Source: Dromiciops gliroides | Lineage: Eukaryota; Chordata; Mammalia; Microbiotheria; Microbiotheriidae | Assembly (NCBI RefSeq): GCF_019393635.1 | Contig: NC_057862.1 | Span: 679,566,814 to 679,630,813 of the forward strand | Reading direction: 5' to 3' | Length of the DNA stretch: 64,000 nt | Shown here: piece after piece, positions 2,376 through 46,054 of the stretch | How positions within the stretch are numbered: position 1 is the stretch's first letter | Layout: every line of letters starts with the position of its first letter | Made by a program: the position numbers and the translations under genes | The notes under the pieces: generated by a model | The model's input: the letters and a program-made list of their open reading frames with translations, nothing else | Databases searched by the model: none | Told to the model about the DNA's origin: nothing

Positions 2376-2431
2376 TAAATTGTTCCTAAATGGAAGCATG
2401 GTTCAAAATATTCATGGAAGAGTCAAAGAAA
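2376..2431 (+). mobile_element. RTE (BovB-type) LINE fragment, left part, interrupted by the tandem provirus
   Basis: This short stretch abuts the array; the sequence resumes at 26221 with an RTE endonuclease-domain reading (IGRVGFIIHPKAK-like). The 4-bp duplication GAAA at 2428-2431 and 26221-26224 shows the two flanks were once contiguous. Assigning the left piece itself to RTE is an inference from that continuity. Confidence 0.45.
2428..2431. other. Target-site duplication GAAA, left end of the tandem provirus
   Basis: GAAA directly precedes the first base of the outermost LTR (TGTATGG at 2432). The same four bases directly follow the last LTR at 26221-26224. Four-base duplications are typical of class I/gammaretrovirus-like integrases. 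Confidence 0.8.
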
Positions 2432-2912
2432 TGTATGGAGCAAACTGCCTCAGTTTACCCAAATAACTCGAGGAGACCACCAAGTCTAGCAGAGACAGAT
2501 TTATTACATCCTCATGAGGACGGGCAAAACCCAATTACACAATGAAGTCTTGCAAAGATATGCCCAATCCTCTAGGTTTTTATAGTAATCTTGAAAAGGA
2601 CTGTCCCCACATACACCTAGGGTAGATGAGCTCACAATCTAACATCCAATCCTGTCTCACCCAGGGTGCGTGTTCAGCTCGTGATCAATGTATGGAGACA
2701 TGCATACGTGTTCCAGGAACAAGGGGGAAAAGGGGAGGGGGAACAAGGTCAAACCAAAGGAAGAGGAAACAGGGGAGTGACAGATGTTTCAGATCTCACA
2801 GTTCCCACTGACTCCCCTCTCCAGGCCCCCCACCCCCGTCTCTAAAGATATTCAACCTGAATAACAAGAAGAGTCACTCAGGTGCTTCAGCACTGTTAAG
2901 GATGACAGGGTT

Positions 2913-3489
2913 AAAATTTACCTTCGGTGGTTGGAAGATGGCTGTAACGGCGAGCGGTCGGCTGCTGTCGCTGCTGGGCCAGGTCCGGGCCCCGGCCCCG
3001 GCCGGGCGGTTGCTGTCCAGCGGCGTCCACGGCGAGGAGGGCACGGGCCGCCTGTGGAGATCGCTGACCTTCTTCGTCGCGCTCCCCGGGGTGGCAGTCA
3101 GCATGCTGAATGCCTACCTGAAGTCGCGGGAACATCATGAACGACCCGAATTCGTCCCCTACCCGCATCTCCGCATCCGGACCAAGCCCTTCCCATGGGG
3201 AGATGGAAACCATACTCTGTTTCATAACCATCATATCAATCCTCTCCCAACCGGCTATGAGGATGAATAAAGAAAACTTGGACCATACTAATCAAGCACT
3301 GGGGGACCACAGCAGCTGATGGACCATCCTTTCCTCTGTATGTGGATTAGAAAATTCTATGGGACCTTAAGTTAACTTCCATCACACAGTAACAAATATG
3401 CTGACCTTTTATCATTTTGCTTGTGATTGAGGAAGGCTTAAATAAATCTTACCTTAGACCATGAAAAAAAAAAAAAATTTACCTTCGGT
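2913..3489 (+). pseudogene. COX6A1: COX6A1 processed retrocopy with target-site duplications
   Basis: An intronless cDNA-like copy lies between two 16-bp direct repeats (AAAATTTACCTTCGGT at 2913-2928 and 3474-3489). The empty site, with one copy of that motif, is seen in the three other LTRs (for example near 13420). The copy has a short 5'UTR, the full coding frame, a 3'UTR with AATAAA near 3441 and a poly(A) tail ending near 3473. Poly(A), long TSD and an A/T-rich site are hallmarks of L1-driven retroposition. As it is absent from LTR-b, c and d, it probably arrived after the array had formed. Confidence 0.95.
2938..3270 (+). CDS. COX6A1: Cytochrome c oxidase subunit 6A1 (intact ORF in a retrocopy)
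   Basis: A 110-codon open frame matches the liver-type subunit VIa of complex IV, a small inner-membrane protein of mitochondria. Seen: an N-terminal basic, Ser/Arg-rich presequence (about 1-26), the SSGVHGEEG junction, the hydrophobic membrane segment [20 protein letters not shown] (about 42-61), and the conserved C-terminal run ERPEF...[23 protein letters not shown]...[10 protein letters not shown]. Length is within one residue of the 109-residue human protein. The ATG at 2938 is the family start; an upstream in-frame ATG at 2902 lies in LTR sequence. The frame has no stop and conserved residues are kept, so it is either very young or under constraint. Expression is unknown: the copy sits on the plus strand inside a minus-strand LTR. 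Without transcripts it should be treated as a retropseudogene with coding potential. Confidence 0.85.
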
Positions 3490-5505
3490 TATGGTGGGAA
3501 GAAAAGAATAATCCATTGTTGGGACCCCAGGGTCAAGGGGATTCTGCTCTGAGAAAAAGAGACAATGTCACTTAACATCTGGTCTCACCTCAATGGCTGC
3601 ATCCTGTGCCGAGTCCCGTCCTTTCTTCTTGAGTCCCGAGTATTGAATTGGTGGGCTAACTCCCTGACCCACTGACTGGGGTTCTGACACATGATGGATT
3701 GCAGACAAAACTAATATATAGCTGACAAGTGGGGAGACTGAGCAGAAGTAAAAATACTGTTAATTGGCAATAAAACTTAAAGGAGACAATGAGAATTTGA
3801 CAAGCAATAAACTTCTAAACAAACTATACTGGGGCAGGGCTGGGTACCTTCCAAACCCCATCCTCAGAGTATAATCTGACTCAAATCCATAATCATATCA
3901 TACAAATCCCCCGTTTTTCTTTTATGCTCAGAGAGCATATTCTGGATTTGAGTCACTGTCGATGAGCCCTTCAGCCATGCAGGATTTTAGCCCACCAGTC
4001 CAAGCCCAACTCATCACCAGTCTCTCCTTTGTGAAGTTTCAGAATCAGGGTCTTTAATCTTTTCTCAGTGAACTGCTGAGTCACCATCAGCTGCATCTGT
4101 TGAACTGCACGTTGTATCAAACCTATAAAGCAAGGGACTAAACAGGGACAAATATAAGGAGAACTCCAAAATTATAAATGAATACCTTTCAGGAGGTAAA
4201 TTGGGGTCTAATTAATTATCCCAATATACCATATACATGTCAATAACTACCAATATTATAACAACAAACATGATTTAAAACCTCTTTATAATTTCAGTGA
4301 TGTGCTCCCAGTGCCCATTCACTTAGCAATTTTCATCTTTGATCTCAGATGCCCCTATTAGAACCTTTTAGAAAACAAATTTAAATAGCAAATACAACTG
4401 TTTTCCCAATTTTATCCAAGGAAAGAGTAATTTCTAATTGGCCCCTTCTAGGCCTGAGTATCCCCAACTAGACTTGAGCCCACTAGGCTACCACTACATT
4501 TCCCCACCCCTCCTTCTAATAGCTAAGGGAAAAGAGGGCGAAGATCTCTTCTTTTGTAACTGCTACAAGCTGAATATGTGTGTAGAGCCGACAGTAGAAG
4601 GTGCAGAAATCCTTGCAGGCCTGGTCCAGATGGTGAAGGGGGTATATAGTCTGGAATTGCTAACATAAAATTGAAAGCCTTGAGCCTAGATAAAACAAAC
4701 TATCAAGAGGTTAAAGAGACAAAGACAAAAAATTTAAAAGGACAACAATAGGGAAAAGGGGCAAACCAAAAGAGTGAATCCAGGAACCCCCAGATCCTGC
4801 ATCAGGAGCGAAAAGCTGTTCACAAATGTCCTTCATCCAGTGAAAGGTGTCATGAATGCCCCATGCTGTTCAAAGCTTTACCGAGTTCTGTATCTGACAG
4901 ACATTATTAACAACAAGTCAAAGGGTTACCACTATCTTGCTACATGCAAGCCATATAATCTAAATGTTTCAAAATGCCACTGGTGGCAGAACCCTTAAAT
5001 TTTTCCAAATTACATCTATATCCATTTCACTTTATTTCTCCAAAGGTTTTCACTCAATTGTTTAAGATGTAATCCTCACATAAAACTTAGGTTACAAAAT
5101 ACCTTTGTAAGAAGATGACCACAAATGAACTCACATAAGAGTTACCAAGTTAACTTCAATTCTAATAAAAGACTTAGGATGACATTTAACCAATTAATTT
5201 CAAAACAGTGCATGTCAAATAAGTTGTCCATAATAAACCATGTTTGTATTACAGGACATGCTCTATAGACAGATATTATTTCTACATTACACAATAAACT
5301 TATATAACAAAACATTCTATATTTTACTCTTCTCTGTTTTCTTGAAACAGACTTGAGATGTCTCTGGTTCAATTTCTAACATGCATAACTAATAACAGAC
5401 AGATGACAAGGCTAAATGCTTATACATTCTAGTTGTTTAGATTCTGAAAGGGACTAGAATTTCTAAGCCAAATAGCTTGAATCTTAAACCTGCATCTCAC
5501 CCAGA

Positions 5506-5509
5506 TGTT
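5506..5509. other. Target-site duplication TGTT, left end of the nested LTR element
   Basis: TGTT at 5506-5509 is repeated at 9264-9267. The empty site, with a single CAGATGTTACAG, is seen in the other internal regions (for example near 15447). Confidence 0.85.
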
Positions 5510-5882
5510 TGTAACGATTGGAATAACGCCACCTGCTGGATACTTACTGTAGAAGAGTTCTGCCCATGAAGGGAAGGTCTTTGAGGGCAAGACCAGGAGT
5601 CTTTTCTTCAGGAGTCAGGAAGTGACGCGGACTAGTGGGAGGAGGAAGGAAGAGACTGGCGCTCAGTCTCGGGCTCTTTCCTCTGGACTCTGGTGGAGAG
5701 CGGAGCTAGAAATGTGCTCTCCCTTTAATAGATAGGAATCTAGGCCTTTTTCTCTCTCTTTACCAAATTCTTATTCTCCTTAATAAATGCTTAAAAGTCT
5801 AACTCTTGCTAAAGCTTATAATTTATTGGCGACCACTCATTAGATATTTTAGACAGTTTAGCTAGAATTTTAACCCTTAACA
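5510..5882 (+). repeat. 5' LTR of the nested element
   Basis: TGTAACGATTGG...CCCTTAACA, 373 bp. It contains an AATAAA near 5782 and a U5-side GGCGACCAC motif that resembles the tRNA-Arg-type primer-binding sequence. No difference from the 3' LTR was seen on reading. Confidence 0.9.
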
Positions 5883-5983
5883 GATGGCTGACCACGAAGA
5901 GGAAAGCTAACCCTCAGTCTTCTTCTGATCTGCTGGTTGGGTAAGAAATTTCCCCTCCCTCTCCCTTTAACTGCTAAGTACTG

Positions 5984-6901
5984 GTGTACTGGCTGTGTTT
6001 TTCCTTTGAATTTTTTCGAATGGACCTTTTAAACTCCCTAATTACCCTATTTTTTATTTTAGTCTGTTTAACCAGACAAATGGGAGATAAGATCATGTTA
6101 ATGCTTTGTTTTTGTGGATTTTCTATTTTTCTTTTTCTTTTTGTTAAAAGAGCCAGCAACTTACTCACACAAGGAAATATCTCTCCCTCTCCCAACCATG
6201 CTTTTTCAGAGAAACCTGTAGAGATTCCCGCAGCTTTTCCCAGTTCTAACACTAATTGTTGCTCTAATTTTGCATGCCTGGAGGCAATGACCCACCCTCT
6301 AGAAGCTTTTAATCCCCTAGCACCTGGAGGCAAAGTGGGGGAAGAGGAATCCAGGCCTGAGTTCAAAATCAAGTCTGATTCAAATTGCTCTGGTCCCTCC
6401 CCTCCTCTCCAGACCCCACCCTCTACTCCTCCCATGGCCAAGCCCATTGCTTCCCCTGCCTGGGAAGTCCAGAGAACTGATGCGCATGCTCAACTTTCTC
6501 TAACTACATTTGCAGCTTCAGGCTCAGCCCTTCCCCAGCCTGGCTGTGCTTCTGAGACAACCTTAGAAAGCCCTTTAAATTCCAGATATACTCGTTTTGT
6601 TCATAATTTTGCTAACCTGCTTTTGTCTTTAATTAGTAATCTTATAAAGCATTTGTATGGTGAAAAGCCCGACAGACAATATAGAGGGGTTAAAGAAGAA
6701 AAACTTAAGCCGAATAAGAATGACAATCATCAACATAGTTCAAGACTCCGCTTCTTTTGCCATGGAAGGGTATATATTTTACAGAAATGTAGAAGTAAGC
6801 AGCAAGGTATTGATATGAGTATTGGGGATTTTAGATATCGGAATCAAAAGTGTTCTAAATTCACTCAGATTATTAATAGTATCAGTTCAGAAGTTACATA
6901 G
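5984..6901 (+). CDS. Unrecognised 305-codon ORF inside the nested LTR element
   Basis: An uninterrupted frame starts about 100 bp after the 5' LTR. Seen: hydrophobic N-terminal segments (about residues 12-28 and 38-53), a Pro/Ser-rich middle (about 125-160), another hydrophobic stretch (NLLLSLISNLIKHLY, about 212-226) and a basic C-terminal part. I see no retroviral matrix, capsid, zinc knuckle, protease, polymerase or envelope signature. It may be a highly diverged or captured element ORF, or chance openness in young sequence. It is listed because it is by far the longest frame in the element. Confidence 0.35.
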   Translation: MYWLCFSFEFFRMDLLNSLITLFFILVCLTRQMGDKIMLMLCFCGFSIFLFLFVKRASNLLTQGNISPSPNHAFSEKPVEIPAAFPSSNTNCCSNFACLEAMTHPLEAFNPLAPGGKVGEEESRPEFKIKSDSNCSGPSPPLQTPPSTPPMAKPIASPAWEVQRTDAHAQLSLTTFAASGSALPQPGCASETTLESPLNSRYTRFVHNFANLLLSLISNLIKHLYGEKPDRQYRGVKEEKLKPNKNDNHQHSSRLRFFCHGRVYILQKCRSKQQGIDMSIGDFRYRNQKCSKFTQIINSISSEVT

Positions 6902-8890
6902 GATTTCTATGCTATTACATATACATTTTGAAATTAATGGTATGGGTTTATTTTCATAGAGATTTTAATGCTTTTGAGATTGTGTCTTATACTTAGTTTC
7001 TAAAACAAGGAGAATATTTGTAAAAGCTTTTTATAGTCATGTGATCAAGTTTATATTTTATAATACTCTTATTGATATTAAGTTCATATTCATTTAGATT
7101 TCCTTAGTTTGAATTTCACTGTATTTTATTGTTCCATGTGTATTTTCTTCTATTCATTTGTCTATCTAATTTTGAAACATTGCAAGATGGTTTTGATTTT
7201 ATTATACAATGTTAATTCTAGGAGTATTGTGCTCCCATATTCTGAGTTGTTTTTGTTATTTTTTCTCAACTGATTATTTGATCAAACTCTTTAAAGCATT
7301 TCCCTGGCAAATTGGTTGCCATGGCAAGTGTAAATTGATTCTAGAAGTATTATTTTTGATAAGCATATTCCCAAAAAAAAAAAAAAGAGGGGAACATTTG
7401 TAAAAGTTTTCTATTTTCAAAAAAAAAAAGTTCTTTGAGATTCTGTTGTGCTTTAACTTGTATTTAAGTATGTTCTGATTTTTCACAAAAGTAATTGTAT
7501 ACTAAGTAAAAAAAAAAGGGGTATTATTTGAAATTGTTGCATAATTATATATTGTGTTCTGAGTCAAGATGTATTCACATTTTTTGCAATCATTTATTAT
7601 CCTCAATTTTTAAATCCATATGAGACTTGGAATTATGGGAATTTATCATTTAAAACATTAATTGCCTTTATTCTGAGTTATCAGATGCCAGTTGGCCAAG
7701 ATGCCATCCAATCACAAGAGGAATACATGCAAGAGCAGACACTGAACTGTCACATGAGGGGAGACATGCATGAAGTCAAGGTATGGCCGAGGGAACGGCT
7801 TTTGACAAATGTTGAGGTTGGATTCTCTTGGTTTAATATTTTATTTTATTTTTCCCCACAATATTGTACAGATGGCTGGAAGTATTCATCCCACCCATCT
7901 CACTTCTACACCTGGCTTCCATGCTCCCTCCTATATGCCTGATGCCATGGACATCTCAGTCCCATGCATCTGATTAAGTCTGACTCAGTTTCCTCCAATA
8001 TGTTCGGTGGCATGGACATATATTCCATCCACCTATTTTAAGCCTGGCATACTGCATGGACAGTACATACTGCTCAAGTGTGGGAATGCTCATATCCCAT
8101 CATTTCTCTGTTCTTTTATGGTAACCCCCATAATTATCTCAGGTGTCATGATAAATACAGTGTTGAATTTGGCCTTGACACCTGTTACCAATTATATTAG
8201 ATTTTTTAAATTTCTCATAATGGCATGAGGATAATTAGGCAGATGATGCAAAAAGTGATGAAACAAAGATAAAAAATTATTTTTAATAATTAATATCGCA
8301 GCAATTGTCTTCTCAATTACCCTCCATAAGGGGGGGACTATAGTAATATTATAATTTTAAAGAATGGTTCAATTTTTGTTTTATTATATGTTTCATGTGT
8401 AACAACTAAGATTCTGAATTCCCTTAGGCATGTTTTTGAGAACTTTCATTGTTTGATTTGATTATTGACAAAGCTATTTTAAAGTTGTGTTAAGCTCAAT
8501 TTTGTAGGAAATTTTCCTGGCTGATTACCAGCATCCACACATCAACCCCTGAAAAGACTTCCATTCCATGACTACACCTAGAGGACATCTGAGAAAAGAC
8601 TTTCAGAGACTTTAAATGAACAGTTTTGATTTGTTGTTTTTTTTCTCTTTCTGTTATAATATACACCATCTGTAACATGTATTCTCTGCAGAGGCCCTCC
8701 CTTTGCAAGACTAATGTCAAAGCGTCGGTTCATGAGGACAAAAAAAAAAAAATCGCCCCTCTGAACAAAACTTTCCTCTCTTCCTTTTCTATATTGTTGT
8801 TCACATATTATTAGTTAGCAATAGTTATTATATTCTTTTTACTGTTCCGTCAAGGAAACATTTTGTTTCTTGAGGAACAACAGGGGGGAC

Positions 8891-9263
8891 TGTAACGATT
8901 GGAATAACGCCACCTGCTGGATACTTACTGTAGAAGAGTTCTGCCCATGAAGGGAAGGTCTTTGAGGGCAAGACCAGGAGTCTTTTCTTCAGGAGTCAGG
9001 AAGTGACGCGGACTAGTGGGAGGAGGAAGGAAGAGACTGGCGCTCAGTCTCGGGCTCTTTCCTCTGGACTCTGGTGGAGAGCGGAGCTAGAAATGTGCTC
9101 TCCCTTTAATAGATAGGAATCTAGGCCTTTTTCTCTCTCTTTACCAAATTCTTATTCTCCTTAATAAATGCTTAAAAGTCTAACTCTTGCTAAAGCTTAT
9201 AATTTATTGGCGACCACTCATTAGATATTTTAGACAGTTTAGCTAGAATTTTAACCCTTAACA
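8891..9263 (+). repeat. 3' LTR of the nested element
   Basis: 373 bp, matches the 5' LTR by eye. It is preceded by a purine tract (about 8873-8890) and followed by the TGTT duplication at 9264-9267, after which the host internal region resumes. Confidence 0.9.
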
Positions 9264-12239
9264 TGTTACAGTATTAATCTAGGGATGAAGAGACAATACT
9301 GTGTTCGTGCTTATCAAGTGACATGACTATAGGAACTTGCCATAAAAGAAAAAGAACAAAGCTCTGGGGGAAAGGTACTTTCCCAACTCCCAGTAGAAGT
9401 TTTGTAGACAGCCAGTGCAATATGCCAGACTTAACATCAGCCAGGTGGGAAAGTTTGCATTCAACATTTGGGGAAACCGAGTCAGGAGACACCAACCTCA
9501 GCCTTTGCCAAACAGTTGGTCTCCCATCCTTTCCCAAGAGAACTCCACCTGCAGTGCACACATGTAAAACCCTATAGGGTTGCTGGTATCATGAATCATA
9601 TGGCTCACCATTCCTTGATAGTAATAACTGGAGTCAAACTCAGAGCAATAATGATTAATAGTCCCATAACATCTTAAATAGCAAGTCCCAACAATCAGCA
9701 CTAAAAGTGAATTCACTTCTCAAGGATCACATATCCTAGACAGCAAGTATTAACTATTCTTGTGCTTAAATAGGTTTTTCATCCCCAGATTAACACTACA
9801 CAAATGAATCTGCTTTGAGATGCTCAATAACAAGCAATGGTTGAAATAAGTGTAAGCAATCCCAAATTGCATACTGGGAACAAACTAAAAAAATGCCCCA
9901 CACAATAACACATGGTAAAATGGCTTTAGATGTTAAACATAAGATACTGTCCTCAGAATTCCCCTAAACAATGGGAACATCTTTAAAGTGACAACTAGTT
10001 TGCATGTGTTTCTACACACATTCTGATTCCAATTAATTAAAAACATAAGTAAACTTCAGGTTCCCTATTAAGATGATACAAGATAGCTCATAAGTTACTT
10101 ATTGTTCACTACTAACAGGTCATACATGACAAGTTCAGGCACCAATTTAACTATTGCTTAGCACCAATAAATCCAGGTCAAAAGAGCAAAATCTTTCTCA
10201 TAACTTACTAATTATTTAGATGTTCTAGTATTAATTCAATAACCAATTAATTCAATGTTGCAATAACAAACTTCCACTTTGTCCACTCTCATAATAGAAA
10301 TATACACCAAACCTTAAGAATGAAACTCAAATATTCAGATATTCAGGATTCCAGAAAAGCTTTTTCCATTAATTAACAAATCATAGTAGGTTTGAACATG
10401 ATTGTTTATCAATATCAAATCACCATTGCAACAAATTAGCTTAACTTTATCTCTGCTCCCCTTCTCTCTCATCTCAAGTGTTTGCAGTGGGGAGGAATTT
10501 CAGCTTCTTCCAAACCAAAAAGGAAATATTCAAATAACCCATTCCAATTATAATAACAAATTTTACTAGGCCCCTTTTTAAATCCTCTCATTATCTCTTG
10601 TTGTAGTTGTAGTTGTTGTTCTTTCAAACTACAGTATACCAGATCACAATACAACTTAAAGTAATCCAGCAGTTTCTTTTGCCGTGTTTTTTTTTTCAGG
10701 CAGTTTGTTTCTTCCTGTCCTTCAAGGTAAGAGACTGCACTAAGGATTTCAAGTCCCATCCCCCTCTAATACCAAATTACATTTCACAAAGAGATCCCAT
10801 CAAGCTTCTAACTTTTAGAAAAAAAGCAAATCACTATACTTTGCTGAGGATCTGTTGGATCTTAAAGCCTTAATATACAGCTAAGAATATTCTTACTGTG
10901 CCCACTTCACAGAAAACCATTATCACATTCAATTAAATTCATAACCCAAAGTAATTTAGAGAATCCAAATCTGACCATATCTCTAATACAATAAACTATT
11001 AAACTATTGGGCACTTTTCCTTTCCATATTACAAATCACCTTGAGGTAGTCAGCTTAAAGTTACACAAATAGAACAGTATATATTTCACTTAGAATTAAA
11101 TCAGAATTAGTTCAATTAAACCTCAATTTGTTTTCTGAACGATATCGTATAGAACCTCATTGATAATTTCATATTAGTATTAATTCATCCCATAATCACT
11201 TAAACACTTCCTATTTTCCTGTTTTTCCTTAAATTGTTCCATTACAAAAGAAAATTTTTAAATGGCAGTATATAGTTTGTATGATTCCCAAAGTTTCTTC
11301 AATAGATAGCCCAATCAAATTCAATTACCCTTCTTGATTCCCTAATAACACAAACTTTTCTTTTGCTAGTTTAAAGGAATATTTTAATGCCACATTTAGT
11401 CCTCCAAATTAGTCTGAAAGACAATGCCAGAGCAGCAAGATTCCCTCTGCTCCTCCCCCACTTCCTTAACCTAGCCAGTTTTTTGTTTTTTCCCTAAGGG
11501 TAGCTTCTTCAATTAAACAAAACTTTTCTTTCTAAATTCCAAGCACAGACTTTTGCTCTCTCCTTCCCCACAACAGAAAAAGGGGAAGGGGTGGCTTTCC
11601 TTTTCTTTCTTTAAAAAAAATTCCCAACTATTCATTCTCATGGTCCTAGTCACACTGTCAATGCAGACAGGGCACACTTTTCTTTTACCAATCATAAATA
11701 CTTGAATCACAGCACTTCAGACCATGTAAGCCTGCAAACAGTTTCCTAACCATTCATTCCTCCTTGCTTACTTAATCAAACTTGCTCATACCTTCTCAAC
11801 ACACTTAAACCATCTGAAACTAGCAAAGTGGCAGTTTAGCCAATCTCTCACCAAAGAACCCCATTTATCTATTTTAAGATAGACCCAGGGGATTCTCTTC
11901 TTTAATCTGCCTATTACAAACTTTAGGTGTTCCCTAAAAACAAACTTCACACTCACTCTTTCTCCTTTGTGGTCAGCAGCCTTTTACCTAAGGCTGCAGA
12001 TGGATCACATTCCAATGGCTCAATTCAAATTCTGAGTAATTTACAATTCTACAATCCCCTTCTCAGTCCCTTCTCTAACCCAGACTGCAGGGATCAATTT
12101 CCCTTTCTTCTTCCTTTGTCAATACAGTTATTTTGATGGAATTTTTACTCCTGGACCTCTACTTTTAATTTCAATTGAAAAGGTCTCCTTCCAATTATCT
12201 AACCCAGGATTTTTTCCAGCCTCCTCTGGCTCTTTAAAC

Positions 12240-12660
12240 TTGCCCTACTCTAGATGTTCTACCCGTATTTTGTTCAAGATCCTAGCCTGGTCTGGACTTT
12301 TTAACCCTGAACTCACCGGGCTCCTGTTTTTGCTCGGGATGTCTAGTCAACCCTGGCTCATCATGGACCTCCACCTTTAAAAGGTCTCTACCATCTAGCC
12401 GGTTTTTCAACCCCGCAAACAACAGGTACTAAACCCCCCCCCCAGGGGCGTTCCTATATTTTGTTCGGGGTCTCTATTGTTGGTTGGGTGTCCCCAGACC
12501 TTTTCAACCCCGCAAACTCAATAGGACCTAGAGGGCACCCTAAGGTTAATTCTGCATCTCGTATCAGGGTGTCTATTCAGTCCTAGTGACCTGTTCAACC
12601 CTGCAAAACTTCAACAGACCTTAGGATGATAACTAGGGGTTCCCCGATTTCTTCCTAGAA
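12240..12660 (-). repeat. Degenerate ~100-bp tandem repeats in the proviral leader (unit 1)
   Basis: The motif TTCAACCCCGCAAAC or close variants (AACCCTGAAC, TCAACCCTGCAAAAC) recurs near 12301, 12403, 12501 and 12594. Similar surroundings mention GTTCGGGGTCTCTA / GCTCGGGATGTCTA / ATCAGGGTGTCTA. The block is also present in the other units (near 18430-18850 and 24615-25035). It lies between the PBS and the AT-rich body. Confidence 0.6.
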
Positions 12661-12917
12661 ATCCCCCTGAATGGTCACCCAGTTACTCACCAGTCTGGGT
12701 CTGTGCACACGTTGTGACCGAACCAATCCGGATACTCCTCATTACTTTAGCCAGCACCCCTGTGTCTGGTTGGCTTTTAGGTCTCTCTCTCTCTCTCTCC
12801 GGGCATGGATGCTGAGAAGCCTCACCAAGAGTCAGACCCCTGAACCTGCTGAACTCAGCAGGGACGTCCTTGTTCAGAAGGACAGGCTCCTGGGAGTCTC
12901 CAAAGATCCCCAAAGAG

Positions 12918-12935
12918 ATCCCGGACGAGCCCCCA
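12918..12935 (-). other. Primer-binding site, tRNA-Pro type (unit 1)
   Basis: On the minus strand this reads TGGGGGCTCGTCCGGGAT, the classic gammaretroviral PBS complementary to the 3' end of tRNA-Pro. It sits two bases inside the LTR edge at 12938. A GGTGAGTAAC splice-donor-like site follows in the leader (about 12690). Confidence 0.92.
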
Positions 12936-12937
12936 TC

Positions 12938-13849: not shown

Positions 13850-16800
13850 AATCCCCCGTTTTTCTTTTATGCTCAGAGAGCATATTCTGGATTTGAGTCA
13901 CTGTCGATGAGCCCTTCAGCCATGCAGGATTTTAGCCCACCAGTCCAAGCCCAACTCATCACCAGTCTCTCCTTTGTGAAGTTTCAGAATCAGGGTCTTT
14001 AATCTTTTCTCAGTGAACTGCTGAGTCACCATCAGCTGCATCTGTTGAACTGCACGTTGTATCAAACCTATAAAGCAAGGGACTAAACAGGGACAAATAT
14101 AAGGAGAACTCCAAAATTATAAATGAATACCTTTCAGGAGGTAAATTGGGGTCTAATTAATTATCCCAATATACCATATACATGTCAATAACTACCAATA
14201 TTATAACAACAAACATGATTTAAAACCTCTTTATAATTTCAGTGATGTGCTCCCAGTGCCCATTCACTTAGCAATTTTCATCTTTGATCTCAGATGCCCC
14301 TATTAGAACCTTTTAGAAAACAAATTTAAATAGCAAATACAACTGTTTTCCCAATTTTATCCAAGGAAAGAGTAATTTCTAATTGGCCCCTTCTAGGCCT
14401 GAGTATCCCCAACTAGACTTGAGCCCACTAGGCTACCACTACATTTCCCCACCCCTCCTTCTAATAGCTAAGGGAAAAGAGGGCGAAGATCTCTTCTTTT
14501 GTAACTGCTACAAGCTGAATATGTGTGTAGAGCCGACAGTAGAAGGTGCAGAAATCCTTGCAGGCCTGGTCCAGATGGTGAAGGGGGTATATAGTCTGGA
14601 ATTCCTAACATAAAATTGAAAGCCTTGAGCCTAGATAAAACAAACTATCAAGAGGTTAAAGAGACAAAGACAAAAAATTTAAAAGGACAACAATAGGGAA
14701 AAGGGGCAAACCAAAAGAGTGAATCCAGGAACCCCCAGATCCTGCATCAGGAGCGAAAAGCTGTTCACAAATGTCCTTCATCCAGTGAAAGGTGTCATGA
14801 ATGCCCCATGCTGTTCAAAGCTTTACCTAGTTCTGTATCTGACAGACATTATTAACAACAAGTCAAAGGGTTACCACTATCTTGCTACATGCAAGCCATA
14901 TGATCTAAATGTTTCAAAATGCCACTGATGGCAGAACCCTTAAATTTTTCCAAATTACATCTATATCCATTTCACTTTATTTCTCCAAAAGTTTTCACTC
15001 AATTGTTTAAGATGTAATCCTCACATAAAACTTAGGTTACAAAATACCTTTGTAAGAAGATGACCACAAATGAACTCACATAAGAGTTACCAAGTTAACT
15101 TCAATTCTAATAAAAGACTTAGGATGACATTTAACCAATTAATTTCAAAACAGTGCATGTCAAATAAGTTGTCCATAATAAACCATGTTTGTATTACAGG
15201 ACATGCTCTATAGACAGATATTATTTCTACATTACACAATAAACTTATATAACAAAACATTCTATATTTTACTCTTCTCTGTTTTCTTGAAACAGACTTG
15301 AGATGTCTCTGGTTCAATTTCTAACATGCATAACTAATAACAGACAGATGACAAGGCTAAATGCTTATACATTCTAGTTGTTTAGATTCTGAAAGGGACT
15401 AGAATTTCTAAGCCAAATAGCTTGAATCTTAAACCTGCATCTCACCCAGATGTTACAGTATTAATCTAGGGATGAAGAGACAATACTGTGTTCGTGCTTA
15501 TCAAGTGACATGACTATAGGAACTTGCCATAAAAGAAAAAGAACAAAGCTCTGGGGGAAAGGTACTTTCCCAACTCCCAGTAGAAGTTTTGTAGACAGCC
15601 AGTGCAATATGCCAGACTTAACATCAGCCAGGTGGGAAAGTTTGCATTCAACATTTGGGGAAACCGAGTCAGGAGACACCAACCTCAGCCTTTGCCAAAC
15701 AGTTGGTCTCCCATCCTTTCCCAAGAGAACTCCACCTGCAGTGCACACATGTAAAACCCTATAGGGTTGCTGGTATCATGAATCATATGGCTCACCATTC
15801 CTTGATAGTAATAACTGGAGTCAAACTCAGAGCAATAATGATTAATAGTCCCATAACATCTTAAATAGCAAGTCCCAACAATCAGCACTAAAAGTGAATT
15901 CACTTCTCAAGGATCACATATCCTAGACAGCAAGTATTAACTATTCTTGTGCTTAAATAGGTTTTTCATCCCCAGATTAGCACTACACAAACGAATCTGC
16001 TTTGAGATGCTCAATAACAAGCAATGGTTGAAATAAGTGTAAGCAATCCCAAATTGCATACTGGGAACAAACTAAAAAAATGCCCCACACAATAACACAT
16101 GGTAAAATGGGTTTAGATGTTAAACATAAGATACTGTCCTCAGAATTCCCCTAAACAATGGGAACATCTTTAAAGTGACAACTAGTTTGCATGTGTTTCT
16201 ACACACATTCTGATTCCAATTAATTAAAAACATAAGTAAACTTCAGGTTCCCTATTAAGATGATACAAGATAGCTCATAAGTTACTTATTGTTCACTACT
16301 AACAGGTCATACATGACAAGTTCAGGCACCAATTTAACTATTGCTTAGCACCAATAAATCCAGGTCAAAAGAGCAAAATCTTTCTCATAACTTACTAATT
16401 ATTTAGATGTTCTAGTATTAATTCAATAACCAATTAATTCAGTGTTGCAATAACAAACTTCCACTTTGTCCACTCTCATAATAGAAATATACACCAAACC
16501 TTAAGAATGAAACTCAAATATTCAGATATTCAGGATTCCAGAAAAGCTTTTTCCATTAATTAACAAATCATAGTAGGTTTGAACATGATTGTTTATCAAT
16601 ATCAAATCACCATTGCAACAAATTAGCTTAACTTTATCTCTGCTCCCCTTCTCTCTCATCTCAAGTGTTTGCAGTGGGGAGGAATTTCAGCTTCTTCCAA
16701 ACCAAAAAGGAAATATTCAAATAACCCATTCCAATTATAATAACAAATTTTACTAGGCCCCTTTTTAAATCCTCTCATTATCTCTTGTTGTAGTTGTAGT

Positions 16801-19124
16801 TGTTGTTCTTTCAAACTACAGTATACCAGATCACAATACAACTTAAAGTAATCCAGCAGTTTCTTTTGCCGTGTTTTTTTTTTCAGGCAGTTTGTTTCTT
16901 CCTGTCCTTCAAGGTAAGAGACTGCACTAAGGATTTCAAGTCCCATCCCCCTCTAATACCAAATTACATTTCACAAAGAGATCCCATCAAGCTTCTAACT
17001 TTTAGAAAAAAAGCAAATCACTATACTTTGCTGAGGATCTGTTGGATCTTAAAGCCTTAATATACAGCTAAGAATATTCTTACTGTGCCCACTTCACAGA
17101 AAACCATTATCACATTCAATTAAATTCATAACCCAAAGTAATTTAGAGAATCCAAATCTGACCATATCTCTAATACAATAAACTATTAAACTATTGGGCA
17201 CTTTTCCTTTCCATATTACAAATCACCTTGAGGTAGTCAGCTTAAAGTTACACAAATAGAACAGTATATATTTCACTTAGAATTAAATCAGAATTAGTTC
17301 AATTAAACCTCAATTTGTTTTCTGAACGATATCGTATAGAACCTCATTGATAATTTCATATTAGTATTAATTCATCCCATAATCACTTAAACACTTCCTA
17401 TTTTCCTGTTTTTCCTTAAATTGTTCCATTACAAAAGAAAATTTTTAAATGGCAGTATATAGTTTGTATGATTCCCAAAGTTTCTTCAATAGATAGCCCA
17501 ATCAAATTCAATTACCCTTCTTGATTCCCTAATAACACAAACTTTTCTTTTGCTAGTTTAAAGGAATATTTTAATGCCACATTTAGTCCTCCAAATTAGT
17601 CTGAAAGACAATGCCAGAGCAGCAAGATTCCCTCTGCTCCTCCCCCACTTCCTTAACCTAGCCAGTTTTTTGTTTTTTCCCTAAGGGTAGCTTCTTCAAT
17701 TAAACAAAACTTTTCTTTCTAAATTCCAAGCACAGACTTTTGCTCTCTCCTTCCCCACAACAGAAAAAGGGGAAGGGGTGGCTTTCCTTTTCTTTCTTTA
17801 AAAAAAATTCCCAACTATTCATTCTCATGGTCCTAGTCACACTGTCAATGCAGACAGGGCACACTTTTCTTTTACCAATCATAAATACTTGAATCACAGC
17901 ACTTCAGACCATGTAAGCCTGCAAACAGTTTCCTAACCATTCATTCCTCCTTGCTTACTTAATCAAACTTGCTCATACCTTCTCAACACACTTAAACCAT
18001 CTGAAACTAGCAAAGTGGCAGTTTAGCCAATCTCTCACCAAAGAACCCCATTTATCTATTTTAAGATAGACCCAGGGGATTCTCTTCTTTAATCTGCCTA
18101 TTACAAACTTTAGGTGTTCCCTAAAAACAAACTTCACACTCACTCTTTCTCCTTTGTGGTCAGCAGCCTTTTACCTAAGGCTGCAGATGGATCACATTCC
18201 AATGGCTCAATTCAAATTCTGAGTAATTTACAATTCTACAATCCCCTTCTCAGTCCCTTCTCTAACCCAGACTGCAGGGATCAATTTCCCTTTCTTCTTC
18301 CTTTGTCAATACAGTTATTTTGATGGAATTTTTACTCCTGGACCTCTACTTTTAATTTCAATTGAAAAGGTCTCCTTCCAATTATCTAACCCAGGATTTT
18401 TTCCAGCCTCCTCTGGCTCTTTAAACTTGCCCTACTCTAGATGTTCTACCCGTATTTTGTTCAAGATCCTAGCCTGGTCTGGACTTTTTAACCCTGAACT
18501 CACCGGGCTCCTGTTTTTGCTCGGGATGTCTAGTCAACCCTGGCTCATCATGGACCTCCACCTTTAAAAGGTCTCTACCATCTAGCCGGTTTTTCAACCC
18601 CGCAAACAACAGGTACTAAACCCCTCCCCCAGGGGCGTTCCTATATTTTGTTCGGGGTCTCTATTGTTGGTTGGGTGTCCCCAGACCTTTTCAACCCCGC
18701 AAACTCAATAGGACCTAGAGGGCACCCTAAGGTTAATTCTGCATCTCGTATCAGGGTGTCTATTCAGTCCTAGTGACCTGTTCAACCCTGCAAAACTTCA
18801 ACAGACCTTAGGATGATAACTAGGGGTTCCCCGATTTCTTCCTAGAAATCCCCCTGAATGGTCACCCAGTTACTCACCAGTCTGGGTCTGTGCACACGTT
18901 GTGACCGAACCAATCCGGATACTCCTCATTACTTTAGCCAGCACCCCTGTGTCTGGTTGGCTTTTAGGTCTCTCTCTCTCTCTCTCCGGGCATGGATGCT
19001 GAGAAGCCTCACCAAGAGTCAGACCCCTGAACCTGCTGAACTCAGCAGGGACGTCCTTGTTCAGAAGGACAGGCTCCTGGGAGTCTCCAAAGATCCCCAA
19101 AGAGATCCCGGACGAGCCCCCATC
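13850..19124 (-). mobile_element. Internal region 2 of the tandem provirus
   Basis: 5,275 bp with no nested insertion, so it gives the clean unit structure. From the minus-strand 5' end: PBS 19105-19122, leader repeats, AT-rich body and polypurine tract. Only short frames are present; the repeated plus-strand frames (such as the 126-codon one at 18858) run antisense across leader and LTR and are not genes. No pol-like sequence was recognised. Confidence 0.9.
19105..19122 (-). other. Primer-binding site, tRNA-Pro type (unit 2)
   Basis: Same 18-base match to the tRNA-Pro complement as in unit 1, two bases inside LTR-c. Confidence 0.92.
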
Positions 19125-20036
19125 TGTATGGAGCAAACTGCCTCAGTTTACCCAAATAACTCGAGGAGACCACCAAGTCAAGCAGAGACAGATTTATTAC
19201 ATCCTCATGAGGACGGGCAAAACCCAGTTACACATTGAAGTCTTGCAAAGATATGCCCAATCCTCTAGGTTTTTATAGTAATCTTGAAAAGGACTGTCCC
19301 CACATACACCTAGGGTAGATGAGCTCACAATCTAACATCCAATCCTGTCTCACCCAGGGTGCGTGTTCAGCTCGTGATCAATGTATGGAGACATGCATAC
19401 GTGTTCCAGGAACAAGGGGGAAAAGGGGAGGGGGAACAAGGTCAAACCAAAGGAAGAGGAAACAGGGGAGTGACAGATGTTTCAGATCTCACAGTTCCCA
19501 CTGACTCCCCTCTCCAGGCCCCCCACCCCCGTCTCTAAAGATATTCAACCTGAATAACAGGAAGAGTCACTCAGGTGCTTCAGCACTGTTAAGGATGACA
19601 GGGTTAAAATTTACCTTCGGTTATGGTGGGAAGAAAAGAATAATCCATTGTTGGGACCCCAGGGTCAAGGGGATTCTGCTCTGAGAAAAAGAGACAATGT
19701 CACTTAACATCTGGTCTCACCTCAATGGCTGCATCCTGTGCCGAGTCCCGTCCTTTCTTCTTGAGTCCCGAGTATTGAATTGGTGGGCTAACTCCCTGAC
19801 CCACTGACTGGGGTTCTGACACATGATGGATTGCAGACAAAACTAATATATAGCTGACAAGTGGGGAGACTGAGCAGAAGTAAAAATACTGTTAATTGGC
19901 AATAAAACTTAAAGGAGACAATGAGAATTTGACAAGCAATAAACTTCTAAACAAACTATACTGGGGCAGGGCTGGGTACCTTCCAAACCCCATCCTCAGA
20001 GTTTAATCTGACTCAAATCCATAATCATATCATACA
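19125..20036 (-). repeat. LTR-c of the tandem provirus
   Basis: 912 bp, same ends as LTR-b and no difference from it seen by eye. The near-identity of the two inner LTRs, compared with the slightly more different outer pair, is expected if inner LTRs arose by later recombination or duplication. Confidence 0.93.
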
Positions 20037-23000
20037 AATCCCCCGTTTTTCTTTTATGCTCAGAGAGCATATTCTGGATTTGAGTCACTGTCGATGAGCC
20101 CTTCAGCCATGCAGGATTTTAGCCCACCAGTCCAAGCCCAACTCATCACCAGTCTCTCCTTTGTGAAGTTTCAGAATCAGGGTCTTTAATCTTTTCTCAG
20201 TGAACTGCTGAGTCACCATCAGCTGCATCTGTTGAACTGCACGTTGTATCAAACCTATAAAGCAAGGGACTAAACAGGGACAAATATAAGGAGAACTCCA
20301 AAATTATAAATGAATACCTTTCAGGAGGTAAATTGGGGTCTAATTAATTATCCCAATATACCATATACATGTCAATAACTACCAATATTATAACAACAAA
20401 CATGATTTAAAACCTCTTTATAATTTCAGTGATGTGCTCCCAGTGCCCATTCACTTAGCAATTTTCATCTTTGATCTCAGATGCCCCTATTAGAACCTTT
20501 TAGAAAACAAATTTAAATAGCAAATACAACTGTTTTCCCAATTTTATCCAAGGAAAGAGTAATTTCTAATTGGCCCCTTCTAGGCCTGAGTATCCCCAAC
20601 TAGACTTGAGCCCACTAGGCTACCACTACATTTCCCCACCCCTCCTTCTAATAGCTAAGGGAAAAGAGGGCGAAGATCTCTTCTTTTGTAACTGCTACAA
20701 GCTGAATATGTGTGTAGAGCCGACAGTAGAAGGTGCAGAAATCCTTGCAGGCCTGGTCCAGATGGTGAAGGGGGTATATAGTCTGGAATTGCTAACATAA
20801 AATTGAAAGCCTTGAGCCTAGATAAAACAAACTATCAAGAGGTTAAAGAGACAAAGACAAAAAATTTAAAAGGACAACAATAGGGAAAAGGGGCAAACCA
20901 AAAGAGTGAATCCAGGAACCCCCAGATCCTGCATCAGGAGCGAAAAGCTGTTCACAAATGTCCTTCATCCAGTGAAAGGTGTCATGAATGCCCCATGCTG
21001 TTCAAAGCTTTACCGAGTTCTGTATCTGACAGACATTATTAACAACAAGTCAAAGGGTTACCACTATCTTGCTACATGCAAGCCATATAATCTAAATGTT
21101 TCAAAATGCCACTGATGGCAGAACCCTTAAATTTTTCCAAATTACATCTATATCCATTTCACTTTATTTCTCCAAAAGTTTTCACTCAATTGTTTAAGAT
21201 GTAATCCTCACATAAAACTTAGGTTACAAAATACCTTTGTAAGAAGATGACCACAAATGAACTCACATAAGAGTTACCAAGTTAACTTCAATTCTAATAA
21301 AAGACTTAGGATGACATTTAACCAATTAATTTCAAAACAGTGCATGTCAAATAAGTTGTCCATAATAAACCATGTTTGTATTACAGGACATGCTCTATAG
21401 ACAGATATTATTTCTACATTACACAATAAACTTATATAACAAAACATTCTATATTTTACTCTTCTCTGTTTTCTTGAAACAGACTTGAGATGTCTCTGGT
21501 TCAATTTCTAACATGCATAACTAATAACAGACAGATGACAAGGCTAAATGCTTATACATTCTAGTTGTTTAGATTCTGAAAGGGACTAGAATTTCTAAGC
21601 CAAATAGCTTGAATCTTAAACCTGCATCTCACCCAGATGTTACAGTATTAATCTAGGGATGAAGAGACAATACTGTGTTCGTGCTTATCAAGTGACATGA
21701 CTATAGGAACTTGCCATAAAAGAAAAAGAACAAAGCTCTGGGGGAAAGGTACTTTCCCAACTCCCAGTAGAAGTTTTGTAGACAACCAATGCCATATGTC
21801 AGACTTAACATCAGCCAGGTGGGAAAGTTTGCATTCAACATTTGGGGAAACCGAGTCAGGAGACACCTACCTCAGCCTTTGCCAAACAGTTGGTCTCCCA
21901 TCCTTTCCCAAGAGAACTCCACCTGCAGTGCACACATGTAAAACCCTATAGGGTTGCTGGTATCATGAATCATATGGCTCACCATTCCTTGATAGTAATA
22001 ACTGGAGTCAAACTCAGAGCAATAATGATTAATAGTCCCATAACATCTTAAATAGCAAGTCCCAACAATCAGCACTAAAAGTGAATTCACTTCTCAAGGA
22101 TCACATATCCTAGACAGCAAGTATTAACTATTCTTGTGCTTAAATAGGTTTTTCATCCCCAGATTAACACTACACAAACGAATCTGCTTTGAGATGCTCA
22201 ATAACAAGCAATGGTTGAAATAAGTGTAAGCAATCCCAAATTGCATACTGGGAACAAACTAAAAAAATGCCCCACACAATAACACATGGTAAAATGGCTT
22301 TAGATGTTAAACATAAGATACTGTCCTCAGAATTCCCCTAAACAATGGGAACATCTTTAAAGTGACAACTAGTTTGCATGTGTTTCTACACACATTCTGA
22401 TTCCAATTAATTAAAAACATAAGTAAACTTCAGGTTCCCTATTAAGATGATACAAGATAGCTCATAAGTTACTTATTGTTCACTACTAACAGGTCATACA
22501 TGACAAGTTCAGGCACCAATTTAACTATTGCTTAGCACCAATAAATCCAGGTCAAAAGAGCAAAATCTTTCTCATAACTTACTAATTATTTAGATGTTCT
22601 AGTATTAATTCAATAACCAATTAATTCAATGTTGCAATAACAAACTTCCACTTTGTCCACTCTCATAATAGAAATATACACCAAACCTTAAGAATGAAAC
22701 TCAAATATTCAGATATTCAGGATTCCAGAAAAGCTTTTTCCATTAATTAACAAATCATAGTAGGTTTGAACATGATTGTTTATCAATATCAAATCACCAT
22801 TGCAACAAATTAGCTTAACTTTATCTCTGCTCCCCTTCTCTCTCATCTCAAGTGTTTGCAGTGGGGAGGAATTTCAGCTTCTTCCAAACCAAAAAGGAAA
22901 TATTCAAATAACCCATTCCAATTATAATAACAAATTTTACTAGGCCCCTTTTTAAATCCTCTCATTATCTCTTGTTGTAGTTGTAGTTGTTGTTCTTTCA

Positions 23001-25310
23001 AACTACAGTATACCAGATCACAATACAACTTAAAGTAATCCAGCAGTTTCTTTTGCCGTGTTTTTTTTTTCAGGCAGTTTGTTTCTTCCTGTCCTTCAAG
23101 GTAAGAGACTGCACTAAGGATTTCAAGTCCCATCCCCCTCTAATACCAAATTACATTTCACAAAGAGATCCCATCAAGCTTCTAACTTTTAGAAAAAAAG
23201 CAAATCACTATACTTTGCTGAGGATCTGTTGGATCTTAAAGCCTTAATATACAGCTAAGAATATTCTTACTGTGCCCACTTCACAGAAAACCATTATCAC
23301 ATTCAATTAAATTCATAACCCAAAGTAATTTAGAGAATCGAAATCTGACCATATCTCTAATACAATAAACTATTAAACTATTGGGCACTTTTCCTTTCCA
23401 TATTACAAATCACCTTGAGGTAGTCAGCTTAAAGTTACACAAATAGAACAGTATATATTTCACTTAGAATTAAATCAGAATTAGTTCAATTAAACCTCAA
23501 TTTGTTTTCTGAACGATATCGTATAGAACCTCATTGATAATTTCATATTAGTATTAATTCATCCCATAATCACTTAAACACTTCCTATTTTCCTGTTTTT
23601 CCTTAAATTGTTCCATTACAAAAGAAAATTTTTAAATGGCAGTATATAGTTTGTATGATTCCCAAAGTTTCTTCAATAGATAGCCCAATCAAATTCAATT
23701 ACCCTTCTTGATTCCCTAATAACACAAACTTTTCTTTTGCTAGTTTAAAGGAATATTTTAATGCCACATTTAGTCCTCCAAATTAGTCTGAAAGACAATG
23801 CCAGAGCAGCAAGATTCCCTCTGCTCCTCCCCCACTTCCTTAACCTAGCCAGTTTTTTGTTTTTTCCCTAAGGGTAGCTTCTTCAATTAAACAAAACTTT
23901 TCTTTCTAAATTCCAAGCACAGACTTTTGCTCTCTCCTTCCCCACAACAGAAAAAGGGGAAGGGGTGGCTTTCCTTTTCTTTCTTTAAAAAAAATTCCCA
24001 ACTATTCATTCTCATGGTCCTAGTCACACTGTCAATGCAGACAGGGCACACTTTTCTTTTACCAATCATAAATACTTGAATCACAGCACTTCAGACCATG
24101 TAAGCCTGCAAACAGTTTCCTAACCATTCATTCCTCCTTGCTTACTTAATCAAACTTGCTCATACCTTCTCAACACACTTAAACCATCTGAAACTAGCAA
24201 AGTGGCAGTTTAGCCAATCTCTCACCAAAGAACCCCATCTATCTATTTTAAGATAGACCCAGGGGATTCTCTTCTTTAATCTGCCTATTACAAACTTTAG
24301 GTGTTCCCTAAAAACAAACTTCACACTCACTCTTTCTCCTTTGTGGTCAGTTGCCTTTTACCTAAGGCTGCAGATGGATCACATTCCAATGGCTCAATTC
24401 AAATTCTGAGTAATTTACAATTCTACAATCCCCTTCTCAGTCCCTTCTCTAACCCAGACTGCAGGGATCAATTTCCCTTTCTTCTTCCTTTGTCAATACA
24501 GTTATTTTGATGGAATTTTTACTCCTGGACCTCTACTTTTAATTTCAATTGAAAAGGTCTCCTTCCAATTATCTAACCCAGGATTTTTTCCAGCCTCCTC
24601 TGGCTCTTTAAACTTGCCCTACTCTAGATGTTCTACCCGTATTTTGTTCAAGATCCTAGCCTGGTCTGGACTTTTTAACCCTGAACTCACCGGGCTCCTG
24701 TTTTTGCTCGGGATGTCTAGTCAACCCTGGCTCATCATGGACCTCCACCTTTAAAAGGTCTCTACCATCTAGCCGGTTTTTCAACCCCGCAAACAACAGG
24801 TACTAAACCCCCCCCCAGGGGCGTTCCTATATTTTGTTCGGGGTCTCTATTGTTGGTTGGGTGTCCCCAGACCTTTTCAACCCCGCAAACTCAATAGGAC
24901 CTAGAGGGCACCCTAAGGTTAATTCTGCATCTCGTATCAGGGTGTCTATTCAGTCCTAGTGACCTGTTCAACCCTGCAAAACTTCAACAGACCTTAGGAT
25001 GATAACTAGGGGTTCCCCGATTTCTTCCTAGAAATCCCCCTGAATGGTCACCCAGTTACTCACCAGTCTGGGTCTGTGCACACGTTGTGACCGAACCAAT
25101 CCGGATACTCCTCATTACTTTAGCCGGCACCCCTGTGTCTGGTTGGCTTTTAGGTCTCTCTCTCTCTCTCTCCGGGCATGGATGCTGAGAAGCCTCACCA
25201 AGAGTCAGACCCCTGAACCTGCTGAACTCAGCAGGGACGTCCTTGTTCAGAAGGACAGGCTCCTGGGAGTCTCCAAAGATCCCCAAAGAGATCCCGGACG
25301 AGCCCCCATC
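20037..25310 (-). mobile_element. Internal region 3 of the tandem provirus (5'-most unit in element sense)
   Basis: 5,274 bp, collinear with internal region 2. It has several private variants clustered near its two ends (for example around 21781-21800 and 24238-24352), more than separate units 1 and 2 in those stretches. PBS at 25291-25308 beside LTR-d. Otherwise as internal region 2. Confidence 0.9.
25291..25308 (-). other. Primer-binding site, tRNA-Pro type (unit 3)
   Basis: Same 18-base PBS, two bases inside LTR-d. This is the PBS belonging to the outermost 5' LTR of the array. Confidence 0.92.
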
Positions 25311-26220
25311 TGTATGGAGCAAACTGCCTCAGTTTACCCAAATAACTCGAGGAGACCACCAAGTCAAGCAGAGACAGATTTATTACATCCTCATGAGGAT
25401 GGGCAAAACCCAATTACACATTGAAGTCTTGCAAAGATATGCCCAATCCTCTAGGTTTTTATAGTAATCTTGAAAAGGACTGTCCCCACATACACCTAGG
25501 GTAGATGAGCTCACAATCTAACATCCAATCCTGTCTCACCCAGGGTGCGTGTTCAGCTCGTGATCAATGTATGGAGACATGCATACGTGTTCCAGGAACA
25601 AGGGGGAAAAGGGGAGGGGGAACAAGGTCAAACCAAAGGAAGAGGAAACAGGGGAGTGACATGTTTCAGATCTCACAGTTCCCACTGACTCCCCTCTCCA
25701 GGCCCCCCACCCCCGTCTCTAAAGATATTCAACCTGAATAACAGGAAGAGTCACTCAGGTGCTTCAGCACTGTTAAGGATGACAGGGTTAAAATTTACCT
25801 TCGGTTATGGTGGGAAGAAAAGAATAATCCATTGTTGGGACCCCAGGGTCAAGGGGATTCTGCTCTGAGAAAAAGAGACAATGTCACTTAACATCTGGTC
25901 TCACCTCAATGGCTGCATCCTGTGCCGAGTCCCGTCCTTTCTTCTTGAGTCCCGAGTATTGAATTGGTGGGCTAACTCCCTGACCCACTGACTGGGGTTC
26001 TGACACATGATGGATTGCAGACAAAACTAATATGTAGCTGACAAGTGGGGAGACTGAGCAGAAGTAAAAATACTGTTAATTGGCAATAAAACTTAAAGGA
26101 GACAGTGAGAATTTGACAAGCAATAAACTTCTAAACAAACTATACTGGGGCAGGGCTGGGTACCTTCCAAACCCCATCCTCAGAGTTTAATCTGACTCAA
26201 ATCCATAATCATATCATACA
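25311..26220 (-). repeat. LTR-d of the tandem provirus (outermost 5' LTR in element sense)
   Basis: 910 bp. It ends CATACA at 26220 and is followed directly by the GAAA duplication and RTE flank instead of a polypurine tract. That marks it as the true outer edge. It differs from LTR-a at about seven positions plus a 2-bp indel by eye, i.e. under 1%. Confidence 0.92.

Positions 26221-44564: not shown

Positions 44565-46054
<1,490 letters not shown>

What the first reader, a model, noticed from the sequence alone, without database searches (positions are those of the whole stretch)
2432..26220. Tandem provirus with four LTRs and three internals inside one integration footprint
Seen: LTR-int-LTR-int-LTR-int-LTR with a 6,187-bp period. 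A PBS lies beside LTR-b, c and d and a polypurine tract beside LTR-a, b and c. GAAA is duplicated only at the two outer ends. Solo LTRs and single proviruses are the usual outcomes of LTR recombination; the reciprocal product, a multi-unit array, is seldom preserved. It is a natural record of LTR-mediated unequal exchange and could vary in copy number between individuals.
Basis: partly seen in the sequence, partly recalled or inferred. Interest (0 to 1): 0.88.

Follow-up and report, generated by a model that had tools for sequence, protein, structure and literature searches.

The report
Three-unit endogenous retrovirus tandem array
One ancient virus insertion in a marsupial-like genome has grown into three head-to-tail copies sharing their end repeats, and the small differences between the copies suggest this happened after the insertion, by uneven DNA exchange; such arrays are known from other genomes, so it is a clear new example rather than a new kind of thing.

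Summary
Four LTRs (2432-3904, 12938-13849, 19125-20036, 25311-26220) alternate with three internals on the minus strand, with PBS and polypurine tracts as described and GAAA only at the outer ends. Units 2 and 3 repeat every 6,187/6,186 bp; unit 1 is 10.5 kb because it alone holds a COX6A1 retrocopy and a 3.75-kb LTR element. The element is a tRNA-Pro-primed ERV with no recognised coding domain. A junction pattern finds 56 genomic loci; only this one is an array. None of 20 other copies fetched shows a second unit in the fetched flank. Polarised against other copies, LTR-b and c share two derived bases with LTR-a but not LTR-d, as a crossover hybrid would, and the internals carry incompatible shared-derived sites, so units have exchanged DNA. 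This favours one integration expanded later by unequal exchange and partly homogenised; insertion of a ready-made concatemer is not excluded. Known kind: HERV-K108, wallaby walbRep, KERV arrays, plant tandem LTR elements. Copy-number polymorphism and read support were not testable.

The parts
2428..2431 (.). GAAA, left copy of the outer target-site duplication
2432..3904 (-). LTR-a (3' LTR of the array in its sense direction), interrupted by a COX6A1 retrocopy
2929..3473 (+). COX6A1 processed retrocopy with poly-A and intact 110-aa frame (2938-3270), target duplication of up to 16 bp
3905..12937 (-). internal 1 (5,275 bp plus nested LTR element)
5510..9263 (+). nested 3,754-bp LTR element, two identical 373-bp LTRs, TSD TGTT (5506-5509 and 9264-9267)
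12918..12935 (-). PBS beside LTR-b, 18 nt complementary to tRNA-Pro 3' end with CCA
12938..13849 (-). LTR-b, identical to LTR-c
13850..19124 (-). internal 2 (5,275 bp, PPT at 13850, PBS at 19105-19122)
19125..20036 (-). LTR-c
20037..25310 (-). internal 3 (5,274 bp, PPT at 20037, PBS at 25291-25308)
25311..26220 (-). LTR-d (5' LTR of the array in its sense direction), keeps the ancestral base at the sites aligned to 13663 and 13734
26221..26224 (.). GAAA, right copy of the outer target-site duplication
10256..14603 (.). tract identical to the sequence one unit to the right except one base in a C run (12438)

Best explanation
A single tRNA-Pro-primed, class-I-like ERV without recognised coding capacity integrated once (shown: one GAAA duplication at the outer ends). 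Later, LTR-a on one chromatid paired with LTR-d on another and an unequal crossover made a two-unit array with a hybrid middle LTR (inferred; that its right part comes from LTR-a is shown at two sites). A further misaligned exchange, or gene conversion over about 4.3 kb, gave the third unit and the identical LTR-b and LTR-c (inferred). Units exchanged sequence after they had begun to differ (shown by incompatible shared-derived sites). A COX6A1 retrocopy and a young LTR element are in unit 1 only (shown), most likely later arrivals (inferred).
For: Outer TSD only, PBS or PPT at every inner LTR edge. Sites 13663 and 13734: A in LTR-a, b, c; G in LTR-d and in the other LTR copies read (36 G, 1 A, 4 unread; and 44 G, 0 A). 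Internals: derived state shared by units 1+3 at 14828, 15980, 16111 and by 1+2 at 15598, 15602, 15681 and 18940, three switches along the internal; in a star-tree simulation with nine hits per unit, three or more parallel sites arose in 1 of 200,000 runs. LTR-a to LTR-d divergence (7 of 910) exceeds int1 to int3 (13 of 5,274), Fisher P 0.02, as expected if duplication followed insertion. The 4,349-bp gap without difference, C-run site left out, had P 2.5e-5 with 35 differences and 0.005 with 21 merged events. None of 20 other copies fetched shows a second unit in its flank; 55 of 56 junction loci are singletons.
Against: With the C-run site (18625/12438) counted, the longest gap is 2,183 bp and P is only 0.049. 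A fresh crossover between misaligned units should leave a full period (6,187 bp) identical; the tract is shorter, so later change or conversion must be added. The left part of LTR-b/c carries no d-derived base, so the breakpoint is not located and LTR-b could come wholly from LTR-a. LTR-d could have regained the two key bases by ectopic conversion. Site 15598 is G in five other copies (L011, L019, L031-L033), so it is a weak marker; 18940 is a CpG site. LTR-a has more derived substitutions than LTR-d (6 against 1). The LTR/internal comparison uses one chosen pair of internals.
Confidence: 0.8

Rival explanations
1. A tandem DNA or RNA (for example a read-through transcript from a one-LTR circle, or template switching) was integrated as a ready-made three-unit array in one step.
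For: One outer TSD fits equally. Morales-Diaz et al. (PMC11899658; abstract, section 8 and passages seen) link one rice array to a single insertion and could not decide between the mechanisms at another.
Against: All LTRs and internals should then have started alike; LTR-a/b/c share two derived bases that LTR-d lacks, LTR-b and c are identical while a and d differ by 7 substitutions plus an indel, and LTR divergence exceeds internal divergence. Later gene conversion could still produce these, so this is not excluded.
Confidence: 0.12
2. Assembly artefact: one provirus, or a different number of units, was mis-assembled into three.
For: No reads were available; near-identical tracts of several kb are where assemblers err.
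Against: The three internals differ at about 20 sites and unit 1 holds two unique insertions with target duplications, so at least three different copies are represented; the assembly is chromosome-scale (3.30 Gb in 17 contigs); no piece of the array recurs elsewhere in the window.
Confidence: 0.06
3. Independent proviruses integrated next to or inside each other.
For: The family was recently active (LTR pairs 98.8-100% identical).
Against: No TSD at any inner LTR and exact PBS-LTR-PPT joins. Over the 900-bp piece searched the three units are near-identical and the best other place is 94%; against it, one other piece reaches 97-99% in several copies, so identity alone is weaker evidence than the joins.
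Confidence: 0.01

Closest known systems
HERV-K(HML-2) tandem proviruses at 7p22.1 (K108) and 6q14.1 (human)
   Same: Tandem proviruses sharing a middle LTR inside one locus, polymorphic with other alleles (passages in PMC11807958 and PMC4149278)
   Different: Two units of a coding family; here three units of a tRNA-Pro-primed family without recognised coding domain, population state unknown
walbRep satellite of the red-necked wallaby
   Same: Repeat unit of LTR plus internal of a non-autonomous marsupial ERV (passage in the review PMC10815390)
   Different: Satellite DNA described there as found only in that wallaby; here three units at one locus
KERV megasatellite (Koga et al. 2023)
   Same: Provirus structure kept in tandem arrays sharing LTRs, in kangaroos (title and description seen only in PMC11899658; the paper itself is not held)
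   Different: Centromeric arrays; here at 679.6 Mb of a 701.6-Mb sequence
Tandem LTR retrotransposons of rice and other plants
   Same: Arrays with shared LTRs and one outer TSD, highly polymorphic in rice (PMC11899658, abstract, section 8 and passages)
   Different: Plant elements; mechanism left open there, whereas polarised sites here favour recombination after insertion
TRIM arrays in bivalves and Cassandra arrays in plants
   Same: Arrays of terminal repeats and internals of non-autonomous elements (passages in PMC6934838 and PMC7215508)
   Different: Miniature elements, up to 58 terminal repeats at one bivalve locus

Membership tests
Tandem LTR element array with shared LTRs | n internals alternating with n+1 LTRs, same strand | tested here: met
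   three internals, four LTRs
Tandem LTR element array with shared LTRs | one target-site duplication at the outer ends only | tested here: met
   GAAA at 2428 and 26221; PBS or PPT at the inner edges
Tandem LTR element array with shared LTRs | unit number varies between individuals | not testable with these tools
   no reads or second genome
Class I (gammaretrovirus-like) ERV | PBS complementary to tRNA-Pro (recalled as typical) | tested here: met
   15 nt match the 3' end of a tRNA-Pro(AGG) gene of this genome, L037, followed by CCA
Class I (gammaretrovirus-like) ERV | 4-bp TSD (recalled as typical) | tested here: met
   GAAA here; 18 of 20 other copies, by eye
Class I (gammaretrovirus-like) ERV | class I pol sequence | tested here: not met
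   no Pfam retroviral domain in the 14 internal frames scanned of 26 listed; longest stop-to-stop frame over the internal stretch of 20 copies 149 aa. Hence class-I-like and non-autonomous, not filed as a member
Kangaroo KERV or walb ERV | sequence identity to KERV or walb | not tested
   no marsupial reference sequence was at hand

The most novel reading that the evidence does not exclude
This is an early stage, away from any known centromere, of an ERV-to-megasatellite pathway in a marsupial: a non-autonomous provirus that has passed from one to three units and is already evolving in concert, so walbRep- or KERV-like satellites may begin as ordinary unequal exchange at scattered proviruses, with unit number still varying in the population.
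Probability: 0.35. Interest if true: 0.62.

Novelty: new member of a known kind. Interest (0 to 1): 0.42.

Why it matters
Whether tandem LTR elements arise by recombination after insertion or are inserted ready-made is described as open for plants (PMC11899658, passages). This array keeps enough scattered differences, with other copies in the same genome to polarise them, to favour recombination and to show exchange between units. It may be an early stage of the kind of satellite built from marsupial ERVs (walbRep, KERV).

Tried and rejected
Considered: that the array is an old insertion whose age is hidden by homogenisation, because the nearest LTR copies were first seen at 96% (40 of 1,860 candidates scored) and the nearest copy of one internal piece at 94% (40 of 332 scored). 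Dropped: counted without gaps, the array LTRs differ from five related solo LTRs by 1.8-3.0%, and those differ from each other by 1.65-2.76%, so a fairly young insertion of a small subfamily explains it.

Considered: that the five differences within 84 bp (15598-15681) are a conversion tract from another family copy. Some alleles occur in other copies (15598 G in L011, L019, L031-L033; 15602 G in L019; 15612 T in L010, L013, L029). A genome search with the int3 version (40 of 257 candidates scored) found no other place above 95%; the int1/int2 version was not searched genome-wide. Left open.

Considered: a second array at C3:664.74 Mb. L031 holds two decayed same-strand pieces joined at a 52-bp LTR remnant, but the next 3 kb (L036) has mixed orientation and L032, L033 lie inverted nearby, so it looks like a scrambled cluster; only part of it was seen.

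Hybrid test in the left part of LTR-b/c: no informative d-derived base, so no breakpoint. Rfam at gathering thresholds: no match in the window. Not answered, machine busy: the genome search for the COX6A1 parent and the PPT-junction census. The census therefore rests on one 21-base junction pattern with up to 2 mismatches (its reversed control gave 1 match) and misses more diverged or truncated copies. Literature: ten searches; their listings show no three-unit array of this family, but host species and family name are unknown here, so that is weak.

Full report
What is there. Self-comparison and exact motif search confirm the array. LTR-a is 2432-3904, LTR-b 12938-13849, LTR-c 19125-20036 and LTR-d 25311-26220; internals are 3905-12937, 13850-19124 and 20037-25310. 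The element reads on the minus strand: each internal begins at its right end with a primer-binding site and ends at its left end with a polypurine tract. Termini are TGTATG...CATACA, and GAAA stands directly outside the two outer ends. No inner LTR has its own duplication.

Correction to the finding. The 6,187-bp period applies to units 2 and 3 only. Unit 1 is 10,506 bp from LTR-a to LTR-b because it holds a COX6A1 retrocopy (545 bp, target duplication of up to 16 bp, poly-A, intact 110-aa frame) and a 3,754-bp LTR element with identical 373-bp LTRs and TSD TGTT. The uninterrupted target sequence is seen in LTR-b and in int2, and c, d and int3 align without the inserts, so both insertions followed the duplication or were on a copy that was not duplicated.

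Host and family. The window lies at 679.57-679.63 Mb of a 701.6-Mb sequence in a 3.30-Gb genome of 17 contigs. The short repeats of the flank look like marsupial MAR1-type SINEs and the sequence sizes (764, 702, 671, 497, 303, 281, 85 Mb) resemble a dasyurid karyotype; both are recalled or inferred, not tested. The PBS matches 15 nt of the 3' end of a tRNA-Pro gene of the same genome plus CCA. No Pfam retroviral domain was found in the 14 internal frames scanned of 26 listed, and the longest stop-to-stop frame over the internal stretch of 20 other copies is 149 aa. The family thus has no recognised coding capacity and was presumably moved in trans (inference). It was active recently: in the 20 fetched copies the aligned LTR pairs are 98.8-100% identical, though only 81-258 bp could be aligned in L009-L011.

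How unusual in this genome. A pattern over the PBS-LTR junction (21 bases, up to 2 mismatches) gave 58 matches, its reversed control 1; three are the array, and each of the other 55 is at least 140 kb from any other match. So 1 of 56 loci is an array. Of the 20 copies fetched first, 18 have both LTRs and two (L010, L011) lack most of the right LTR; none shows a further unit in the 1-2 kb of flank fetched, apart from one weak 190-bp match (72%) beside L012. The five best LTR matches outside the array that were fetched carry no internal; four of the five have a 4-bp duplication.

Differences between units. LTR-b and LTR-c are identical over 912 bp. LTR-a and LTR-d differ by seven substitutions and one 2-bp deletion. 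Internals differ at 10 (1 v 2), 14 (1 v 3) and 17 (2 v 3) positions of about 5,275, one C-run site included (a further gap pair at a piece boundary is an alignment artefact of that C run). Against L004-L028, LTR sites 13663 and 13734 are derived in a, b and c and ancestral in d; 12993, 13048, 13373 and 13816 are derived in a alone (13373 could be read in the five solo LTRs only); 13027 (CpG, variable in the family) and the deletion in d alone; 13040 in b and c. The a-like right part of LTR-b/c is what a crossover between LTR-d (left part) and LTR-a (right part) yields; the left part gives no positive evidence.

Exchange between units. In the internals, the derived base is shared by units 1 and 3 at 14828, 15980 and 16111 and by units 1 and 2 at 15598, 15602, 15681 and 18940. 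In the 25 other copies looked at, the derived bases at 14828, 15980, 15681 and 18940 were seen in none that could be read there, 16111 in one (L031), 15602 in one (L019), and 15598 in five (L011, L019, L031-L033). Sites 15992 (CpG), 15612 (variable in the family) and 18625 (C run) were left out of this count. One tree cannot hold both groups without parallel mutation; three or more parallel hits arose in 1 of 200,000 star-tree simulations. Units have therefore exchanged sequence. Comparing each unit with the next, a gap of 4,349 bp without difference spans int1, LTR-b and int2 if the C-run site is ignored (P 2.5e-5, or 0.005 with clustered differences merged); if that site is counted, the longest gap is 2,183 bp and P is 0.049.

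Mechanism. The simplest history is one integration, then unequal LTR-LTR crossover to two units, then a further misaligned exchange or conversion to three, with two insertions into unit 1. A fresh exchange should leave a full 6,187-bp period identical, and the tract seen is shorter, so later change is needed too. Integration of a ready-made concatemer would leave all LTRs alike at the start; the patterns above then need later conversion. It is kept as the main rival. With a recalled mammalian rate of 2-5e-9 per site and year, LTR-a/LTR-d divergence (0.77%) would mean roughly 0.8-1.9 million years; conversion makes this uncertain.

What is known. Human HERV-K loci show two-unit arrays that are polymorphic (passages). 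Rice has many arrays, with one locus taken as a single insertion and another undecided. Bivalve TRIMs and plant Cassandra form arrays (passages). A review describes walbRep, a wallaby satellite made of LTR and internal of a non-autonomous ERV (passage), and PMC11899658 cites a KERV megasatellite (passages). The dasyurid ERV survey PMC11334065 does not contain the word tandem in its main text (a word search and passages). The array is therefore a new member of a known kind, with an unusually readable history.

Limits. No reads, no second individual and no sister genome were available, so unit number, polymorphism and age by orthology are untested.

Noticed in passing
5510-9263: The nested LTR element belongs to a very young, numerous family: a search with 801 bp of it gave 2,598 first-look candidates and, of 40 scored, 10 other places at about 100% identity. 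Four of its frames had no Pfam match above cut-off. Its PBS resembles one for tRNA-Arg (recalled, imperfect).
   Followed up: partly
2929-3473: COX6A1 retrocopy with intact 110-aa frame inside LTR-a, on the strand opposite to the ERV; the search for its parent did not complete.
   Followed up: partly
44612-46054: C2H2 zinc-finger frame with 12 matched fingers, about 18 kb right of the array; a zinc-finger gene next to young ERVs.
   Followed up: partly
L031 1021-9741, L032, L033, L036: Scrambled cluster of older relatives at C3:664.74-664.80 Mb, including two same-strand pieces joined at a 52-bp LTR remnant; mixed orientations.
   Followed up: partly
9411-9494, 15598-15681, 21785-21868: Five differences between int3 and int1/int2 within 84 bp, alleles partly present in other family copies; possible ectopic conversion tract.
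   Followed up: partly
13850-19124: The 5.3-kb internal of a recently active ERV family shows no recognised coding domain; which helper moves it was not looked for.
   Followed up: no
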